Notes: generated by a model not told the origin, from the letters alone. DNA of 64,000 nt from Planctomycetia bacterium (GCA_034440135.1 JAWXBP010000319.1:1-64000); one strand, 5' to 3'. Positions 29,238-37,272 are shown, counted from the stretch's first letter. Program-made: numbers and translations.

Positions 29238-30632
29238 TCAGTCGCGGAAGAAGATCGCGATTGCGTCGAGCGCTCGCACGGCGACGCCGGGGCTGCGGAC
29301 TTCTTCGCCGTCGGCGCATTCTTGCCAGAGTCGCAAGGCATAGCGCACGTAGTGCTCGCGATAGACTTCGACGTCAGCGCGGCCGAGGCAATTCACCGTG
29401 TGCGGCCAGAGATTGGCCAAGCGGTCGAAGGCTTCTGGTTTGCCGGCGATTGCTTCGAACACCGTGTCGTCGAGCAGTTCCAACTGTTCTTGTGATTGTG
29501 GATGCTGGGCGCCGAGCGTATCGGCCGGGGCGCTCGCGAGCTCCAACAACGTCGCTTCGGCCACGGCGGCCGACCAGCGACTCGCGGCTCGGTCGTGCGC
29601 GGCATCGGCGCGCCGTTCCATGGGAGCGATAGTCGATACGTCCGGTTCTTTGGTCACGATCGTCTCGCGCGCCCGTTCCTCAGGGAAGGCGCTCACCGTG
29701 TCGCTGGCAGCGGACAGCGTCGAGGTATCTTCCAAGGCGCTACCATTCCCAGCCAGTTCTTCCAGCAATTGATCGCCGAGGCGATCGAGATCCTGTCCCG
29801 TTACTGCGCCCAAGCGACCGACGCGCGACGAGAAGAACGACGTCTTTCCTGCGGCCAACGCACAGGACACGAAGCCCGGCCAGCCGTTCGTGACCGAAAG
29901 GCCCGGGGTGCGTTCGGCGCTCAAATCGAGCAATTCGATGTCATGCTGCCGGAGCACGCGGCGTTGTTCCGGCTGGTGGACCGGAACGCAATTGATTTTG
30001 TAGGGACGACGCGGCGAGTATTTGAGACCGGTCGTGAACGACAGTTCCGTGCGGCAACTCGGCGGCAGACAGTTAATCAGTCCGGCCACAAGACACGCTG
30101 GCTGCGCGTGCCCGACGATGCCAAAGGGTTGCCCGGCGATCAAGTGACTCAACAATCGCGCGACCCAAGCAGGGCCGGGATCGGACTGGAGTTGCAGGAA
30201 CACTGATTGATCGACGGCCGCCGCGCGACCTGGTAAGCGGAAGGCGTCGAGCTCCTTCGGCAACTCGTCGTAGATGCGCAGCGAGCCTTGCGCTAATGCC
30301 GCAGTCAGCACGGCGAAGGGATTGTTGCCGAAGCGGGCCAGCGAATCCGGGCCGACCACGAGGCACTGCGTGTAGACTTGCGCGCCGCGACGACCGCTGT
30401 ATTCGCCGCCAGCCGGCTCCGTCTTGGAGATGCAAAACGCGCCGCTCGGCAGTTGGAAGAAGTTGACGCTCACCGCGTCGGCGCCTTCCTCGTACAACGA
30501 GTCGTGCGACGGCCCCCACACGCTGATCTCGCGCGCGTCTTCGTCGCAAATGCCGGGACTGCGGGCCACCAACTGGTAGCCCGCGGCACGGTCCGTCCGC
30601 GCCGAAGTGAAAACGGCTTGTTCGATCAACAT
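29238..30632 (-). CDS. GAP1-like GTPase-associated protein
   Basis: A 464-residue soluble protein, last gene of the four-gene operon. The N-terminal region resembles the GAP1-N2 type domains described for proteins encoded beside conflict-type GTPases: MLIEQAVFTSARTDRAAGYQ, LVARSPGICDEDAREISVWG, then VNFFQLPSGAFCISKTEPAG. The middle (INCLPPSCRTELSFTTGLKY) also fits that family. The C-terminal 150 residues are low-complexity (Ala, Glu, Thr) and then helical (FDRLANLWPHTVNCLGRADV, YREHYVRYALRLWQECADGE). The ATG at 30632 lies 10 bases after the GTPase stop; an upstream GTG at 30662 would overlap it. The domain name is from memory of the family pattern, not a search. Confidence 0.72.
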   Translation of the reverse strand: MLIEQAVFTSARTDRAAGYQLVARSPGICDEDAREISVWGPSHDSLYEEGADAVSVNFFQLPSGAFCISKTEPAGGEYSGRRGAQVYTQCLVVGPDSLARFGNNPFAVLTAALAQGSLRIYDELPKELDAFRLPGRAAAVDQSVFLQLQSDPGPAWVARLLSHLIAGQPFGIVGHAQPACLVAGLINCLPPSCRTELSFTTGLKYSPRRPYKINCVPVHQPEQRRVLRQHDIELLDLSAERTPGLSVTNGWPGFVSCALAAGKTSFFSSRVGRLGAVTGQDLDRLGDQLLEELAGNGSALEDTSTLSAASDTVSAFPEERARETIVTKEPDVSTIAPMERRADAAHDRAASRWSAAVAEATLLELASAPADTLGAQHPQSQEQLELLDDTVFEAIAGKPEAFDRLANLWPHTVNCLGRADVEVYREHYVRYALRLWQECADGEEVRSPGVAVRALDAIAIFFRD

Positions 30633-30642
30633 GCCAGGGGTC

Positions 30643-31554
30643 TCAAGACTTGATGCGCCCAATCAACCACTCGAACGGCTCGATGATGCCGCGCGGTTCG
30701 ACGCGCAACGGCACCCGAACTCGACCGAGCTTGGGCACATTTCGATACGCGCAGGAACCGGCCACACCGGAGGCAAAGAACTGTACCTCACGGAAGCGTT
30801 CCTGGCAGAGCCGGTAAAGGCCCGAGGCATGTCTTGCGGCGAAAGCGGCGGGGTCAATGAAGCAATCTTCCCGCTCGTCCGCTTTGGAGAAAATAAGCGC
30901 GATGGGACGGCTAGGCCAACCGGTCTTGGGGTCCTCGTCCAGTTCGATCAGGTAGCTGAGCAACTTCATGGCGAAGTAATCCTGCTCCAGCGTGCCGGAT
31001 CCGAGCTGCGAAGCGTCCACCAAGAGCAACACGCCGCCGCATTGGCTCAGTAGCGACCGGATCACCTGATACGAACGCGGATGCTCGATTTCTTCCAGCA
31101 GCGCTTCGCCGGCCATATCCGGCATGATCAAGTCGACCGGGTGGCGTTGTTTTTGCGCGCGGACCTGAGCGTGGACCCAATTCCAGCGATCCGGTTCGTT
31201 CGGCGTTTTGTCCGGAAACTCGCCGCGCGAGAGCGCCGCCGTCGTGATTTGTTGCAGCGTGATCGAGAACGCCCCGCGGGCCAGCAATTGCAGCCGGTCT
31301 GGCATCCGCGAGAGCATGTCCATTAACATGCCCAGGTAAACGGTCTTGCCGACGCCGCTGGTGCCGATCGCGGCGACCATGCGGGGACGCACTTTTTGCG
31401 TGTTCGCCTGGTGCGCGAGCGCCATCGGCGCGCAGCAATGCCGACACAACTCGGCGTCGAAGGTGTTGCCGCCCCCGCAGATGTAGCAGGGCACCTGAAC
31501 GGCATAACTCGCCAGGCGATAGGAGTCGAGGTGTAGCGTGCCTTCTTTGATCAT
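30643..31554 (-). CDS. Zinc-ribbon GTPase, double-GTPase (DO-GTPase2) type
   Basis: A 303-residue protein. Residues about 20-42 form a zinc ribbon (CYICGGGNTFDAELCRHCCA; two CxxC pairs). A P-loop GTPase domain follows, with Walker A AAIGTSGVGKTVYLG (about 67-73), G3-like DMAGE in DLIMPDMAGE, and a G4 of SKAD type (ALIFSKADE). The architecture matches the DO-GTPase2 family reported next to GAP1 proteins. Its ATG at 31554 overlaps the FGE-like stop by four bases (ATGA). The enzyme probably switches or powers a complex built by the neighbouring proteins, which is inference. Confidence 0.82.
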   Translation of the reverse strand: MIKEGTLHLDSYRLASYAVQVPCYICGGGNTFDAELCRHCCAPMALAHQANTQKVRPRMVAAIGTSGVGKTVYLGMLMDMLSRMPDRLQLLARGAFSITLQQITTAALSRGEFPDKTPNEPDRWNWVHAQVRAQKQRHPVDLIMPDMAGEALLEEIEHPRSYQVIRSLLSQCGGVLLLVDASQLGSGTLEQDYFAMKLLSYLIELDEDPKTGWPSRPIALIFSKADEREDCFIDPAAFAARHASGLYRLCQERFREVQFFASGVAGSCAYRNVPKLGRVRVPLRVEPRGIIEPFEWLIGRIKS

Positions 31555-32786
31555 GCTCCGGCCTCCTGAAGTTCGGCTTCCGGCTCGGCTGCTTCGCCGT
31601 TGTCGCTGAACGACACGTCGCATGCGCCCAAGGCGCAGCGAAAGCCGACGTTGTATCTGCGTGCGATGGGGTTCTCGCCGCTCTGGAATTGGCTCGTCGC
31701 CTGATTGTCGAAGTACGTGTCGAAAGCGCCGCCGCGGACGCTCTTCATCGGGTTCGGCAGCACCAGCTCCGGTCGGCCGTAGCCGCCGGCGCCGAAGTTA
31801 CTCGCGGTCCATTCCCAAACATTTCCAACCAGTTGGTAGACGCCGCCCACGCTAACGCCGGAGCCGAATTCGGTTACCGAGACGATCCGCCCCGGTCCGG
31901 AGCCCCAGATATTGGCGCGCTCGCGGTCCATGTTGTCGCCCCACGGATAGCGGCGCTGCATCCGGCTGCCCGGTCCCAAGGGCACCGGCCAACAAGCCGC
32001 CTTGACCCACTCGGCGTCGGTCGGCATCCGTTTGCCGACCCAACGGGCGTAGGCCATCGCCTCGTACCAACTCACGCCGATGACAGGTTGATCTTCGGAC
32101 CCCTCGTGGTAGCGCCCATGCCGCCAGTAGCGCGGTCCCAAGGATCCGGTTTGATCGACGAAATCGATCACCGCCGGCAGGATTTTGGCATCCCAGAGGG
32201 CCATCTGTTCATAGCCGCCGGCCATCACGAATTCGAGAAACTGCCGATTCGTGACCGAATAGCGATCCAGGTAATAGGCGTCGACGCGATAGACGGACTT
32301 GTGCGCATCGTCGTCCTCTTCCTTGGGATTGATCGAGTGTTCATCCCAAGGGCCAAGCTCGACCTCGCCAGCCGGCACAAACGCCATTTGTTCTGTGAGC
32401 TCGTCACGAGTGCGGTCGCGATGCGCCGGTGACAGGTTCGCCACGACCTGCGGACGTAGCATGAGGGCATAGCGCCCTTGCGCGAGCATCTGCTCGACGA
32501 GTCCCTCAGTATCTTCGGGGGCCACTGGGGCGCGAGGCTGCTGCACGACGGCCGGCGCAGCGGGCGCGGCCACGGCGGCCGCTGGGGCGGCACGGCTCGT
32601 GCGCCAGCCGAGTATCCACAGTGCTCCCAGCGCGAAGCTCACCGCCCCGATCCCAAAGAGCGGCAGACTATTCCACCAACCGCCGAAGACGAGACACGCG
32701 CCGCCGACGCCGGCCGATAGCCAAGCCCAGCGTTGCCGCGGCACGGCTTTCAGCTTGGTCACGAGGTCGCGGATTTTGACTCTCAC
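31551..32786 (-). CDS. Membrane-anchored FGE/SUMF1-like protein, catalytic cysteines absent
   Basis: A 411-residue protein. Two membrane helices at about 20-61 (WLSAGVGGACLVFGGWW, LFGIGAVSFALGALWILGW) are followed by an Ala/Pro linker and a formylglycine-generating-enzyme-like domain at about 135-395. Visible family motifs are MAFVPAGEVELG, DAYYLDRYSVTNRQFLEFV, PVIGVSWYEAMAYARWVGKR, RYPWGDN, GNVWEWTAS, SVRGGAFD and GFRCA. The segment after RGG (AFDTYFDNQATSQFQ) lacks the cysteines that catalyse sulfatase activation in true FGE, so it is probably a binding or structural domain. It starts at a GTG that overlaps the preceding stop (GTGA). Confidence 0.85.
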   Translation of the reverse strand: MRVKIRDLVTKLKAVPRQRWAWLSAGVGGACLVFGGWWNSLPLFGIGAVSFALGALWILGWRTSRAAPAAAVAAPAAPAVVQQPRAPVAPEDTEGLVEQMLAQGRYALMLRPQVVANLSPAHRDRTRDELTEQMAFVPAGEVELGPWDEHSINPKEEDDDAHKSVYRVDAYYLDRYSVTNRQFLEFVMAGGYEQMALWDAKILPAVIDFVDQTGSLGPRYWRHGRYHEGSEDQPVIGVSWYEAMAYARWVGKRMPTDAEWVKAACWPVPLGPGSRMQRRYPWGDNMDRERANIWGSGPGRIVSVTEFGSGVSVGGVYQLVGNVWEWTASNFGAGGYGRPELVLPNPMKSVRGGAFDTYFDNQATSQFQSGENPIARRYNVGFRCALGACDVSFSDNGEAAEPEAELQEAGA

Positions 32787-33631
32787 GGCGCTACCCCTTG
32801 ATGCCCGTTCTTGATGTTCTTCTGTTGACGACGTTTGATCATGTCCCGCTGCAGCGACTCAAATTGTTCCATCACGGAGTCGACGACCGGATCCGAAATC
32901 GTGGGCGTCGAATCGCCGCGCACCGGAACGGTCTTGCGCGTGGAGTTAGCGCCCGTTTCTTGTTGCTCGACGAGCAACATCGATTGTTTTTCCAAAGCCC
33001 GGCGCAGTTGTTTGAGCTCTCCGGACCATTCGGCCCGCTCTTCCACTTCGCGGCGTTTGTGCTCGGCCAGGGCGGAGTTCGCCTCGGCGGCCCGTTTGCG
33101 AATGTGGTCCAACTCGGTCTCGAGCGCGGCGCGATCTTGCTCGACTTCGCGGAGGCGGCGCTCCAGGTCGGAAACAATTTGCGTTTGGCTCGCGCCTTGC
33201 CGGCCTTTGAGTTCGGCAAGTTCGGCCCGGGCGTCGGCCAATTCGACCGCCATGCCGGCCATGCGCGAGGACTGAGTGGCGGCCTTTTCGAGTTCCTGCC
33301 GCAGAATGCTGATTTCCGATTCGGCCGCATTCCCCTTGGCGGCGGAGCGTTCCAGGCGTTCGATTTTCTCACGGGCCAGCGCCAATTCGGCCGTCAATTG
33401 CTCGACTTGCCGGGACGCCTCCGATTGCTCCGCCTGCGTCGCCAGGATCGTGCTCTCGGCGTCGTCCTGCAGGTGGCGCTCACGTTCGGTGAGGCGATGG
33501 AAACGCTGCTCGAGAGCTTCGAGCTGCGACGTCAGAAAGGTTTCGAATTCCTGCGCCTGCACGCTGCAATCCGCCAGCGCGCCTCGCACGGAATCCCAAC
33601 CCAAGCTCGTGAGTAAGTCTTGTTCGGCCAC
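32783..33631 (-). CDS. Long coiled-coil protein, first gene of the GTPase operon
   Basis: A 282-residue protein, mostly heptad-like coiled coil from about residue 25 to 215 (FETFLTSQLEALEQRFHRLT, ELAALEQRF-like pattern, VEQLTAELALAREKIERLER, LRQELEKAATQSSRMAGMAV, LERRLREVEQDRAALETELD). The C-terminus is basic (MIKRRQQKNIKNGHQGVAP). No membrane helix is seen. It starts at a GTG at 33631 and its TGA overlaps the GTG of the FGE-like gene. It is likely to be a scaffold for the complex, which is inferred from structure and operon position. Confidence 0.82.
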   Translation of the reverse strand: MAEQDLLTSLGWDSVRGALADCSVQAQEFETFLTSQLEALEQRFHRLTERERHLQDDAESTILATQAEQSEASRQVEQLTAELALAREKIERLERSAAKGNAAESEISILRQELEKAATQSSRMAGMAVELADARAELAELKGRQGASQTQIVSDLERRLREVEQDRAALETELDHIRKRAAEANSALAEHKRREVEERAEWSGELKQLRRALEKQSMLLVEQQETGANSTRKTVPVRGDSTPTISDPVVDSVMEQFESLQRDMIKRRQQKNIKNGHQGVAP

Positions 33632-34117
33632 TGCGTGGTTCCGTCGCTGAAGTCCGAGCCTCGACTAGGCGTTTTTCCGGCCGTCGCCTGCGATCGCAAG
33701 CTGGGACGGCGCGCCCCGGCGGAGGAGATGCCGGAACAATGTCTGGTTTTTGATAAGTGGTTTCACCATCAACTCCTTCCGGCCAAGGCGCGGGGTTTTT
33801 GATGGGGCGGGCCACCGGGGAGTCGGTTCGATCCGCCAAACGAACTCTAGGTCAAGCCGGGCCAAGGAGCAAAGTAACCAGGGCCCCTGGAGGAAATCGG
33901 CGTTCGTTTCGCCGCCGCCCAGCAGCCCTAACCGGCAAAATCGGGCGCAATCGCGGCACAAACGAACTGAGCCGGCAATCTTTGGCCCAAGTCTGCCAGC
34001 GAGTTTTCCGACTGGGTGACTTGCCTTGAATTGGCATTTTGGGCAAGATGAGCCATGTTTGGGTGGCGGGCCGCATGGCGGCTCACGCCTTTGGGCTTCC
34101 GGTACTTTCAATAGGTG
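33632..34117. other. 486-bp gap upstream of two divergent genes
   Basis: No gene or repeat of the window's families is seen here. It must hold the promoters of the GTPase operon (minus strand) and of the cysteine-rich gene (plus strand). No clear -35/-10 pair was found. Several short open frames exist but carry no recognisable content. Confidence 0.4.
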
Positions 34118-34516
34118 ATGGAAATGGTCTCGAAATACTCCCTGGCTCTGTTCGCGTTGCTGGCCGCTTTCGCTCCCGGCGCGATCTCCCCGACCACGGC
34201 CGACGCCGCGGTACTGCGTCGCGCCGCCCGGCTCGATGCCGAGGCTTGCTGCGATCCGTGCATCGACTACCGCGATCGCTCCTGCGTTCCGGCCTGCGAG
34301 CGGACCGTCAAGACGGAGCTGTGCGTGTATGATTGTTGCAGCTGCTGCGACATCAAGATCCCGGTGTGCCTGCCGTGCTGCTGCACGGGCGAGCCGACCG
34401 TTTGCTGCCGCAACGGCCTCTTCGGACGCCAGGTCGTCCGCTACGATTGGTGCTGCGGTTGCAGCGTGCAGGTGGTTATCCTCCGCTGCGGCGACGTGGT
34501 CGTCACCTATCTGTAG
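34118..34516 (+). CDS. Secreted cysteine-rich protein
   Basis: A 132-residue protein with a signal peptide (MEMVSKYSLALFALLAAFAP, then GAISPTTADA) and 20 cysteines in the following 92 residues. They cluster as CC or CCC: EACCDPC, YDCCSCCD, CLPCCC, TVCC, WCCGC. The charge is moderate and no family is recognised. The cysteine pattern suggests a disulfide-bonded or metal-binding extracellular protein. Starts at 34115 (GTG), 34118 (ATG) and 34124 (ATG) are all in frame; 34118 follows AGGTG. A strong hairpin follows the stop. Confidence 0.8.
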   Translation: MEMVSKYSLALFALLAAFAPGAISPTTADAAVLRRAARLDAEACCDPCIDYRDRSCVPACERTVKTELCVYDCCSCCDIKIPVCLPCCCTGEPTVCCRNGLFGRQVVRYDWCCGCSVQVVILRCGDVVVTYL

Positions 34517-34629: not shown

Positions 34630-34974
34630 ATGGTTCCCTTGCAGAAGTCTAAGCGCCACCAAAGACCGGTCGCCGCGGCGCTCCAGGAATCGCGCAGCGC
34701 CGAAGCGCTGACGATTGGCTGGCTGCTATCGGTGATGACGACGCTGTTGTGCGTGTGTGGCGCGCTCGTGGCACGCTGGATCGGCGTCGCGCGGCTGCCG
34801 GTGCTCTCCGGGTTGCTCCTCTTCGCGGCGCTCGTGATTGGCGTCGCCTCGCTAGGTCTCGGCGTGCTCATCCGCCGGGTACGCAGCGTTCCCCCGCCCC
34901 GTGGCGTGTATGTGTTTGCCACGGTCGTGGGAATCCTGCCGATCTTGGCGGTGATTCTCGACGCGCTGCTGTAG
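34630..34974 (+). CDS. Small membrane protein
   Basis: A 114-residue protein with three hydrophobic segments: WLLSVMTTLLCVCGALVARW (about 32-50), LPVLSGLLLFAALVIGVASL (about 56-75) and GVYVFATVVGILPILAVILD (about 92-111). The N-terminus is short and basic. No family was recognised. It is separated from lutB by a palindromic repeat. The ATG is preceded by TCACGTGG, which is not a clear ribosome binding site. Confidence 0.65.
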   Translation: MVPLQKSKRHQRPVAAALQESRSAEALTIGWLLSVMTTLLCVCGALVARWIGVARLPVLSGLLLFAALVIGVASLGLGVLIRRVRSVPPPRGVYVFATVVGILPILAVILDALL

Positions 34975-35161: not shown

Positions 35162-36592
35162 ATGCCGGGCACGGATTACGCCAGTCGCGAGCATCACGAG
35201 TTCCTCGACGCCACGACCCAGGCGTTGGCGAACGCGAACTTGCAACTGGCGCTCGCCAATCTCGGCGATACGCTCGGTCAACGGAACAAAGACGCCTTCG
35301 CGGCGTTGCCGGATGCCGACGCCCTGCGCGAGCGCGCGCGGGCGATCAAAGACGCGACGTTGGCGGAACTGGATCGCCACTTGGAAACTCTGGAAGCCAG
35401 CGTTCAGCGTCTCGGCGGCCAGGTGCATTTCGCCGGCGACGGCGACGACGCCTGCCGAATCATTGAGAGCATTTTGCGCGGTTGCGGCGCGCGGCGCGTC
35501 GTGAAAAGCAAGTCGATGACGACGGAGGAGATTCACCTCAATCGCGCGTTGGAAGCGGCGGGCGTCGAGGTCGTGGAGACAGACTTCGGCGAGTTCATCA
35601 TCCAAGTCGCCAAGCAGCGACCGTCGCACCTGGTGGCGCCGGCACTGCATCTGCGTACGCCAGAAGTGGCGCAACTCTTATCGGATCACGCGAAGCGCCC
35701 ACTGCCGGCGGACGCCGAGCAGCTCGCCGCGTATGCTCGCGAAACGCTGCGCGAGAAATTCGCCACGGCCGATGTCGGCATAACGGGGGCGAATTTTGCG
35801 GTAGCCGAGACGGGCACGATCGTGTTGGTCTCGAATGAAGGGAACGCCCGGCTCACCGTGACGATGCCGCGCGTGCAGATCGCCATCATGGGCATTGAGA
35901 AGGTGGTTCCCAAATTCGCCGACCTGCCGGCGTTCTTGAAGGTGTTGGCCCGCGCCGCGACAGGACAGACGCTGTCCGTCTACACGTCGTTGGTCACCGG
36001 CCCGCGCCGCGACGGCGAGCATGATGGCCCTGAAGAATTCCACTTAGTGCTGCTCGATAACGGTCGATCGCGGATTCTGTCGGGGCCCTTGCGCGAGAGC
36101 TTGTTCTGTATCCGCTGCGGCGCCTGCCTCAACGCCTGCCCGGTGTATCGCAATATCGGCGGGCACGCGTATGGCGGCGTATATGCCGGGCCGATCGGCG
36201 CGGTATTGACGCCGCTTTACGATGGCTTAGCGGAAAACAAGCACTTGCCGCACGCCTCAAGTCTTTGCGGCGCATGCCAAACGGCCTGCCCGGTGAAAAT
36301 TGCGATTCCTGAATTGCTGGTAAAGCTGCGCGGCGCGCTGCATGAATTGCCGGCTGGCGATTTGCGCATTGAACATTTGGCCTATCTCTTTTGGGCGCGC
36401 GCGATGCGTTCACCAAGACTCTATCGTCTCGGCACCTGGCTCGCGACACGGACGATCGGCCGCTGGACGAAAAAGACGCGCTGGCTCAAGCGGCTACCGG
36501 GCGGATTGCACGGCTGGACTGCGTCCCGCGATTTCCCCGCTCCGGCCGCGGAGCGCTTTCGCGACTGGTGGTCGCGCGAGGCGGAACAATGA
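35162..36592 (+). CDS. lutB: LutB-like iron-sulfur protein of lactate oxidation
   Basis: A 476-residue cytoplasmic Fe-S subunit of the LutABC L-lactate dehydrogenase complex. The N-terminal LUD-type part (about 100-310) includes TGANFAVAETGTIVLVSNEG and MGIEKVVPKFADLPAF. Two 4Fe-4S sites follow: CIRCGACLNACPVYRNIGGH (about 318) and SSLCGACQTACPVKIAI (about 362). The stop overlaps the lutC start (ATGA). lutA is not adjacent on either side within the window, so the subunit must be encoded elsewhere if the complex is complete. The oxidised substrate is inferred from family members. Confidence 0.9.
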   Translation: MPGTDYASREHHEFLDATTQALANANLQLALANLGDTLGQRNKDAFAALPDADALRERARAIKDATLAELDRHLETLEASVQRLGGQVHFAGDGDDACRIIESILRGCGARRVVKSKSMTTEEIHLNRALEAAGVEVVETDFGEFIIQVAKQRPSHLVAPALHLRTPEVAQLLSDHAKRPLPADAEQLAAYARETLREKFATADVGITGANFAVAETGTIVLVSNEGNARLTVTMPRVQIAIMGIEKVVPKFADLPAFLKVLARAATGQTLSVYTSLVTGPRRDGEHDGPEEFHLVLLDNGRSRILSGPLRESLFCIRCGACLNACPVYRNIGGHAYGGVYAGPIGAVLTPLYDGLAENKHLPHASSLCGACQTACPVKIAIPELLVKLRGALHELPAGDLRIEHLAYLFWARAMRSPRLYRLGTWLATRTIGRWTKKTRWLKRLPGGLHGWTASRDFPAPAAERFRDWWSREAEQ

Positions 36593-37272
36593 ACCGAGAA
36601 CAATTCCTCGCCCAAGTGCGCACCGCCGCGGCTGCCGGTCGGATGTATCGCGTGCATCCGCGACCTCATGCGCATGGCAAGTACGAACCAGCCGATGAGG
36701 CAGAAGCTCAGGCGCGTTTTCATCGCGAGGTCGTCAACGCTGGCGGCGCCTTCCATCCATTGGATGATGGCCTGGCGCTGCGAGAACTGTTGGCGTCATT
36801 GATCGATCGCCATGCGTGCCGAAGCGCGATCGTGTGGCGGCATCCGGCGCTGGAACGCCACGGCGTTTATGGAATGCTTGATCAGCTCGGCGTCACTTGG
36901 CTCGACGCGGAGCGGGCGGAACGCCTCGCGCCGACCGAGCGCCGCGCGGCCTGGCTCGCGGCCGATCTCGGCATCACGGCCGCTGATTTCGCCATCGCGG
37001 AGACCGGTTCCGTCGTGGTGCAATCGCGCCGCGGCCAGGAGCGGATGGCCAGCCTGTTGCCGAAGGTGCATCTGGCGATCGTCGAGCCGGCGATGATCGT
37101 GCCCGATTTGTTCGATCTGTTCGCCCGACTCGAACTGCACGGCCTCGACCAATTACCGAGCAACCTCACGCTCATCACCGGGCCTAGCAAGACCGGCGAC
37201 CTGGAGTTGCGGCTGGTGACGGGCGTGCATGGGCCAAAGGCCTGGCACGTGGCGATGATCAATACGCCGTAG
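36589..37272 (+). CDS. lutC: LutC-like protein (LUD domain)
   Basis: A 227-residue LUD-domain (DUF162) protein, the third component of lactate-utilisation operons. The family core GITAADFAIAETGSVVVQS is followed by LLPKVHLAIVEPAMIVPDLF and the terminal LITGPSKTGDLELRLVTGVH. The ATG at 36589 lies within the end of lutB with a four-base overlap. The N-terminus MNREQFLAQVRTAAAAGR matches typical starts. Confidence 0.9.
   Translation: MNREQFLAQVRTAAAAGRMYRVHPRPHAHGKYEPADEAEAQARFHREVVNAGGAFHPLDDGLALRELLASLIDRHACRSAIVWRHPALERHGVYGMLDQLGVTWLDAERAERLAPTERRAAWLAADLGITAADFAIAETGSVVVQSRRGQERMASLLPKVHLAIVEPAMIVPDLFDLFARLELHGLDQLPSNLTLITGPSKTGDLELRLVTGVHGPKAWHVAMINTP

What the first reader, a model, noticed from the sequence alone, without database searches (positions are those of the whole stretch)
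29238..33631. Four coupled genes: coiled coil, membrane FGE-like, zinc-ribbon GTPase, GAP1-like protein
Seen: four consecutive minus-strand genes with start-stop overlaps (GTGA at 32783-32786, ATGA at 31551-31554) and a 10-base gap before the last. The GTPase has a two-CxxC zinc ribbon, Walker A (GTSGVGKT) and SKAD. The FGE-like domain lacks catalytic cysteines and is tethered by two membrane helices. Known: GAP1-type proteins and DO-GTPases have been described together as parts of predicted NTP-dependent conflict or signalling systems. Inference: the coiled-coil and inert FGE partners make a membrane-bound GTPase switch whose output is unknown. The exact four-gene combination is the best candidate here for a poorly described system.
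Basis: partly seen in the sequence, partly recalled or inferred. Interest (0 to 1): 0.78.

Follow-up and report, generated by a model that had tools for sequence, protein, structure and literature searches.

The report
Bacterial GTPase switch with arginine-finger partner
A four-gene unit conserved across an order of planctomycete bacteria encodes a GTP-driven switch, and gene losses in related genomes indicate that one arginine of the partner protein is there to act on the GTPase, much as human FLCN and NPRL2 are thought to act on theirs.

Summary
Four coupled minus-strand genes (29238-33631) encode a coiled-coil protein (CC), a membrane-anchored FGE-like pseudoenzyme, a zinc-ribbon DO-GTPase and a GAP1-N2/M protein. 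The core pairing, with FGE proteins in planctomycetes, was predicted in 2020 as a conflict system (Kaur et al., eLife).

New here: (1) The order CC-FGE-GTPase-GAP1 recurs across many families of Pirellulales, usually single copy, chromosomal, under strong purifying selection. (2) FGE-GTPase-GAP1 extends to Isosphaeraceae; CC and an 85-residue helical GAP1 tail (C85) form a second module that outlives the GTPase. (3) GAP1-N2 is modelled with longin topology; its nearest solved structures include FLCN and GATOR1 chains, though hits are weak. Arg81 sits in the hairpin loop where those proteins carry their catalytic arginine. (4) Natural knock-outs: Arg81 is present in 44/44 GAP1 proteins whose genome has the GTPase and 0/28 whose genome lacks it, over at least three independent losses. 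No other of 33 conserved positions tracks the GTPase as completely.

Best reading: a GTPase switch turned off by an arginine-finger, longin-like GAP. Catalysis is inferred, not measured; the output is unknown.

The parts
32783..33631 (-). CC: coiled-coil protein, 282 aa
   Evidence: syntenic in the order, fast-evolving (median identity about 30%)
32843..32893 (-). Conserved C-terminal motif of CC (DPVxxSVxxQFxxLQxD), candidate docking site
   Evidence: motif found in 25 of 27 CC proteins; also seen in short CC genes of family f7. Docking role is inferred
31551..32786 (-). FGE-like pseudoenzyme, 411 aa
32592..32738 (-). Membrane helix hairpin of the FGE-like protein (residues 17-65)
   Evidence: absent in Isosphaeraceae homologues and in several Pirellulales
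31632..32393 (-). FGE-sulfatase domain (residues 132-385), catalytic cysteines absent
30643..31554 (-). DO-GTPase, 303 aa
31435..31488 (-). Zinc ribbon C23-C26-C37-C40
   Evidence: all four invariant in 36 homologues
29238..30632 (-). GAP1, 464 aa
30273..30632 (-). GAP1-N2, modelled with longin topology (residues 1-120)
30390..30392 (-). Codon of Arg81, proposed arginine finger
29733..30272 (-). GAP1-M, alpha/beta domain and following helices (residues 121-300)
29250..29573 (-). C85: helical C-terminal domain (residues 354-461), stand-alone gene in some lineages

Best explanation
The operon encodes a GTP-controlled switch. The zinc-ribbon DO-GTPase is the switch. GAP1 turns it off: its N-terminal longin-like domain offers Arg81, in the b4-b5 hairpin loop, to the GTPase active site, whose Ras-Gln61 position holds Glu or Asp; this is the arrangement proposed for FLCN Arg164 and NPRL2 Arg78 and seen for SMCR8 Arg147. 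The FGE-like protein is a dead enzyme, held at the inner face of the membrane by a helix hairpin in many Pirellulales, and serves as sensor or scaffold for the GTPase beside it. The helical C85 tail of GAP1 connects this module to the coiled-coil protein, the likely output or scaffold. Shown here: gene order, domains, lack of FGE catalytic cysteines, purifying selection, and the strict dependence of Arg81 on the GTPase. Inferred: longin fold (model only), catalysis by Arg81, C85-CC contact, FGE as sensor. Unknown: ligand and final output.
For: Arg81 is invariant in 47/47 GAP1-N2 of the alignment and kept in classical GAP1-N2 and N1-like relatives with the motif [DE][YH][STV]GR in nearly all. 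It is R in 44/44 GTPase-bearing genomes and absent in 28/28 that keep GAP1 but lack the GTPase (Fisher 1e-20, not corrected for kinship). Tree: 5 changes of GTPase state in the best tree, 3 forced by supported branches; Arg81 goes with the GTPase in every supported pair, control residues W39, Q5, R209 nearly never. Of 33 conserved positions R81 alone is lost in 28/28 and in the 7 less-diverged rows; next come S79 and E77 of the same loop among those 7. Recent case: G018 GAP1-N is 87% identical to its congener, but EYSSRGG became EHNGWGG; 6/10 changes in the loop against 10/110 elsewhere, p=3e-4. Model topology and Foldseek: FLCN 6nzd_H E 1.7e-3 and 8dhb_J, FLCN-FNIP2 complex chain 6ulg_N prob 0.93, GATOR1 chains 7t3a_B and 9v0j_A. 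Position of the catalytic Arg in these proteins: PMC7464330, PMC8213707.
Against: No Foldseek hit reaches E 0.001, and most of the top 50 are LOV/PAS domains of related fold. Profile comparison with single FLCN and NPRL2 sequences gives nothing, so homology is not shown. Six GTPase-bearing genomes in the first sample lack GAP1-N, so the GTPase can exist without it. Only 3-5 independent losses; sign test p 0.25. An arginine that depends on the GTPase might bind it without catalysing. In 17 of 51 loci C85 was not detected although CC is present.
Confidence: 0.66

Rival explanations
1. GAP1 is a GEF or a plain binding partner: Arg81 grips the GTPase (for example the switch region or the acidic residue at position 150) but does not take part in hydrolysis.
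For: DENN modules are mostly GEFs (PMC3521125). The loss pattern shows dependence on the GTPase, not catalysis.
Against: A single invariant arginine at the hairpin position used for catalysis by FLCN, NPRL2 and SMCR8; S79 and E77 of the same loop tend to go with it.
Confidence: 0.25
2. Conflict (defence) system as proposed by Kaur et al. 2020: FGE is a variable effector that binds an invader, GAP1 couples sensing to the GTPase.
For: Published analogy and family membership. CC evolves fast, and whole modules are lost in some lineages.
Against: The same FGE protein in all 51 well-flanked loci, dN/dS 0.012-0.058, frequent housekeeping neighbours, no plasmid or phage copies, no PADLOC match except coiled-coil noise.
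Confidence: 0.15
3. The FGE-like protein is an active enzyme, for example an iron-dependent EgtB-like oxygenase, and the GTPase regulates its chemistry.
For: Strong fold and sequence similarity to EgtB and FGE; many invariant residues.
Against: FGE cysteines missing; the match to EgtB covers only the FGE-like part (173-370 of the chain), and the DinB half with the iron-binding histidines (own knowledge) is not matched; hydrophobic anchor not conserved.
Confidence: 0.07
4. GAP1-N2 is a PAS-like sensor domain, and Arg81 binds a small ligand that is needed only when the GTPase is present.
For: Many LOV/PAS hits in Foldseek.
Against: Helix pair after b5 and no helices between b2 and b3 beyond one: longin order (criterion). 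A surface hairpin loop is an unusual ligand site.
Confidence: 0.08

Closest known systems
GAP1-N2-type DO-GTPase systems (Kaur et al. 2020, PMC7159879), planctomycete FGS variant
   Same: DO-GTPase with zinc ribbon, GAP1-N2/M encoded downstream, FGE/FGS protein.
   Different: One zinc ribbon, one GTPase, no FNIII protein among the neighbours scanned; CC protein and C85 not described there in the passages read; conserved locus rather than variable. The paper does not mention longin, roadblock or DENN.
Longin-DENN GAPs: FLCN-FNIP2, GATOR1 NPRL2/3, C9orf72-SMCR8
   Same: Modelled longin topology, an invariant Arg in the hairpin loop, a second alpha/beta domain, a GTPase partner.
   Different: No sequence-level homology shown; the eukaryotic proteins act as dimers; a DENN domain in GAP1-M is unproven; the GTPase is of the DO family, not Rag or Arf.
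MglA-MglB (Myxococcus)
   Same: Bacterial GTPase with a dedicated regulator of the related roadblock class.
   Different: MglB gives no residue to the active site (PMC11016934); roadblock proteins were not among the listed fold matches.
Formylglycine-generating enzyme and EgtB
   Same: Fold of the second protein.
   Different: Catalytic Cys pair of FGE missing; not that enzyme.

Membership tests
GAP1-N2-type DO-GTPase system | GTPase of the DO-GTPase families with acidic residue in the Walker B region | tested here: met
   both Pfam models above cut-off; D146xxG149[E/D]150.
GAP1-N2-type DO-GTPase system | GAP1 with N2 and M domains encoded downstream of the GTPase | tested here: met
   N2 in 46/49 and M in 38/49 relatives.
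GAP1-N2-type DO-GTPase system | Third globular domain GAP1-C | tested here: inconclusive
   C85 follows a linker, but no Pfam model clearly matched it.
GAP1-N2-type DO-GTPase system | FNIII-repeat component | tested here: not met
   No FNIII match in the four genes or in the eight neighbours scanned.
GAP1-N2-type DO-GTPase system | Components highly variable between close relatives (conflict hallmark) | tested here: not met
   same FGE protein in all 51 well-flanked loci, strong purifying selection. CC does evolve fast.
Longin-DENN GAP | Longin strand/helix order with C-terminal helix pair | tested here: met
   AF2 model only; criterion from PMC3521125.
Longin-DENN GAP | Significant structural or profile match to FLCN/NPRL2 | tested here: inconclusive
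   Best Foldseek E 1.7e-3, mixed with LOV/PAS; hhalign against single sequences negative.
Longin-DENN GAP | Catalytic Arg in the hairpin loop of the longin domain | tested here: met
   Position and conservation only: R81 in loop 77-83, 47/47; absent in 28/28 GTPase-less relatives.
Longin-DENN GAP | GAP activity on a GTPase | not testable with these tools
   Needs biochemistry.
Formylglycine-generating enzyme | Two active-site cysteines | tested here: not met
   alignment to S. coelicolor FGE.

The most novel reading that the evidence does not exclude
GAP1 is a bacterial arginine-finger GAP built on a longin (perhaps longin-DENN) scaffold, so that the catalytic strategy of the eukaryotic FLCN/GATOR1/C9orf72 family exists, by descent or convergence, across the GAP1-N family of bacteria and controls a conserved membrane-linked GTPase switch in Pirellulales.
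Probability: 0.5. Interest if true: 0.88.

Novelty: new variant of a known kind. Interest (0 to 1): 0.7.

Why it matters
DO-GTPase/GAP1 systems are widespread but, as far as the library searched shows, uncharacterised, and the name GAP1 says only 'GTPase-associated'. The loss pattern pins function on one residue and makes the claim testable by one mutation. If right, bacteria use a trans-acting arginine finger on a longin-like fold, unlike MglB, which gives no active-site residue; that bears on the origin of the eukaryotic longin-DENN regulators. It also suggests that at least one branch filed as a conflict system behaves as a core switch.

Tried and rejected
GAP1 or GTPase in PDB by profile: no real match. 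FGE as active formylglycine enzyme: rejected on missing cysteines. The conserved C-terminal E-x-x-A of FGE as a functional tail: it probably only encodes the ribosome site and start of the overlapping GTPase gene. C85 strictly tied to CC: rejected, 17 of 51 loci have CC without detectable C85. A first FGE dN/dS (0.229) was an alignment error caused by an indel and was redone (0.035). Mobile-element origin: no plasmid or phage hit. The last fold search was left unused because the viral library would not help.

Full report
OBSERVATION. Pfam gives FGE-sulfatase, DO-GTPase1/2 and GAP1-N2 above cut-offs; GAP1-M is weak in the window protein but found in 38 of 49 relatives. The window belongs to Pirellulales: the nearest named record is a Pirellulales MAG with a nearly identical GTPase, and the cultured Blastopirellula marina DSM 3645 has the same gene order.

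CONSERVATION. In 58 relatives the GTPase was found in 37 and GAP1 sequence in 42. Gene order CC-FGE-GTPase-GAP1 recurs in many families. Of 51 loci with enough flank, all 51 have FGE with the GTPase, 46 have GAP1-N, 43 have CC and 26 have C85. Frequent neighbours are carA, an aminotransferase, AsnRS, thioredoxin reductase and small secreted or membrane proteins (names by my reading of the sequences), although the window's own neighbours include LUD-domain (LutB/LutC-like), GcvT-like and redoxin genes. Identity medians across genome pairs: GTPase 59%, FGE about 45%, GAP1 38%, CC 30%, against 72% for CarA. Against the congener, dN/dS is 0.012 for the GTPase and 0.058 for GAP1 and 0.035 for FGE. 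Plasmid and phage records hold no relative of the GTPase at E 1e-5.

MODULES. FGE-GTPase-GAP1-N also occurs in other planctomycete families, including Isosphaeraceae (Singulisphaera, Aquisphaera), there without C85 and with FGE proteins that lack a clear membrane segment. C85 was found essentially only in this order. In family f13 and most of f19 only CC and a stand-alone C85 remain; in family f7 some genomes keep FGE, GTPase and stand-alone C85, others only C85, in at least one case with a short CC-like gene. So CC and C85 persist without the GTPase, while FGE was not seen apart from the GTPase in the loci read (loss of one gene was not surveyed separately).

STRUCTURE. AF2 gives GAP1 three parts: an N domain with order b1-b2-a1-b3-b4-b5-a2-a3, an alpha/beta M domain, and after a disordered linker (303-353) the helical C85. 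Foldseek against PDB finds nothing below E 0.001; the first two hits are folliculin chains (identity of 6nzd_H and entry 8dhb by sequence), followed by LOV/PAS domains, an FLCN-FNIP2 complex chain, GATOR1 chains and TagF. Longin and PAS are related folds; the helix pair after b5 favours longin (criterion from PMC3521125). Profile comparison with single FLCN and NPRL2 sequences was negative. The FGE model matches EgtB and FGE strongly, but both catalytic cysteines are missing.

ARG81. The loop 77-83 between b4 and b5 holds an arginine that is invariant in 47/47 sequences and, by alignment, in the readable classical GAP1-N2 and N1-like proteins of other planctomycetes (five loci whose open frame was picked wrongly were left out). 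The catalytic arginines of FLCN (Arg164) and NPRL2 (Arg78) lie in analogous loops of their longin domains, and SMCR8 Arg147 was seen pointing at the nucleotide mimic (PMC7464330, PMC8213707).

NATURAL KNOCK-OUTS. A search of 297 genomes of the order showed genomes with GAP1 but without the GTPase. Loci of 27 of them plus G018 were read together with GTPase-bearing ones. Arg81 is R in 44/44 with GTPase and in 0/28 without: Trp in G018, His in G532, loop disrupted or deleted in the rest. On a tree built without the loop columns the best tree needs 5 changes of GTPase state, 3 forced by supported branches; in every supported independent pair Arg81 changes with the GTPase, while W39, Q5 and R209 almost never do. 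The sign test cannot reach significance with so few pairs (p 0.25), and the Fisher value ignores kinship. The argument rests on specificity: among 33 positions conserved in GTPase-bearing genomes, only R81 is lost in all 28 and in all 7 less-diverged rows, followed by S79 (1 of 7 kept) and E77 (3 of 7) of the same loop; the others keep 4 to 7 of 7. In G018 the rest of GAP1-N is nearly unchanged from its congener and under purifying selection, so this is not general decay; in the second recent pair (G532 against G549) the loop changes are not significantly concentrated.

MECHANISM. Taken together: GAP1 acts on the GTPase through Arg81, most simply as an arginine finger. FGE, always beside the GTPase in these loci, is a non-catalytic partner, probably sensor or anchor. 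C85 and CC are probably the output side. The first statement is strongly supported, the word 'catalytic' is inferred, and the last two are proposals.

KNOWN AGAINST NEW. The pairing of DO-GTPase, GAP1-N2 and FGS protein in planctomycetes is in Kaur et al. 2020. That paper does not mention longin, roadblock or DENN, and literature searches found no longin assignment of GAP1 (open-licence papers only). MglB, the known bacterial GAP of related class, gives no active-site residue (PMC11016934).

LIMITS. Absence of the GTPase in draft genomes can be an assembly gap, but in the GTPase-less loci GAP1 usually lies on a contig with kilobases of flank and no GTPase. Gene calls were mechanical. The longin reading rests on one template-free model.

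Noticed in passing
L187-L193 (family f7), e.g. L190:8424-9516: Stand-alone C85 protein (118 aa), in L190 next to a short CC-like gene, in genomes without the GTPase; function unknown.
   Followed up: partly
L236-L249, L259-L265: A deeply diverged GAP1 branch in family f17 without GTPase or FGE, with open frames up to about 700 aa: the GAP1 scaffold apparently reused for something else.
   Followed up: partly
L258:2806-3957: The GTPase of G563 matches the profile in two pieces within one open frame, suggesting an insertion near residue 137.
   Followed up: no
L066, L078, L080, L091, L093, L096: GTPases of genomes without GAP1-N are the most diverged of the order (about 40-48% identity), as if released from the GAP1 contact.
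   Followed up: no
window 34115-34513 and 34630-34971, + strand: Two small genes divergent from the operon (Cys-rich, probably secreted; small membrane protein) that are syntenic with it in much of the order; no Pfam match.
   Followed up: partly
window 35162-37272, + strand: LUD-domain genes (LutB/LutC-like) beside the operon in the window and in some relatives.
   Followed up: no
L072, L077, L131, L134: The CC protein grows to about 850-880 aa in some genomes; in L072 and L077 the C-terminal motif is kept.
   Followed up: no
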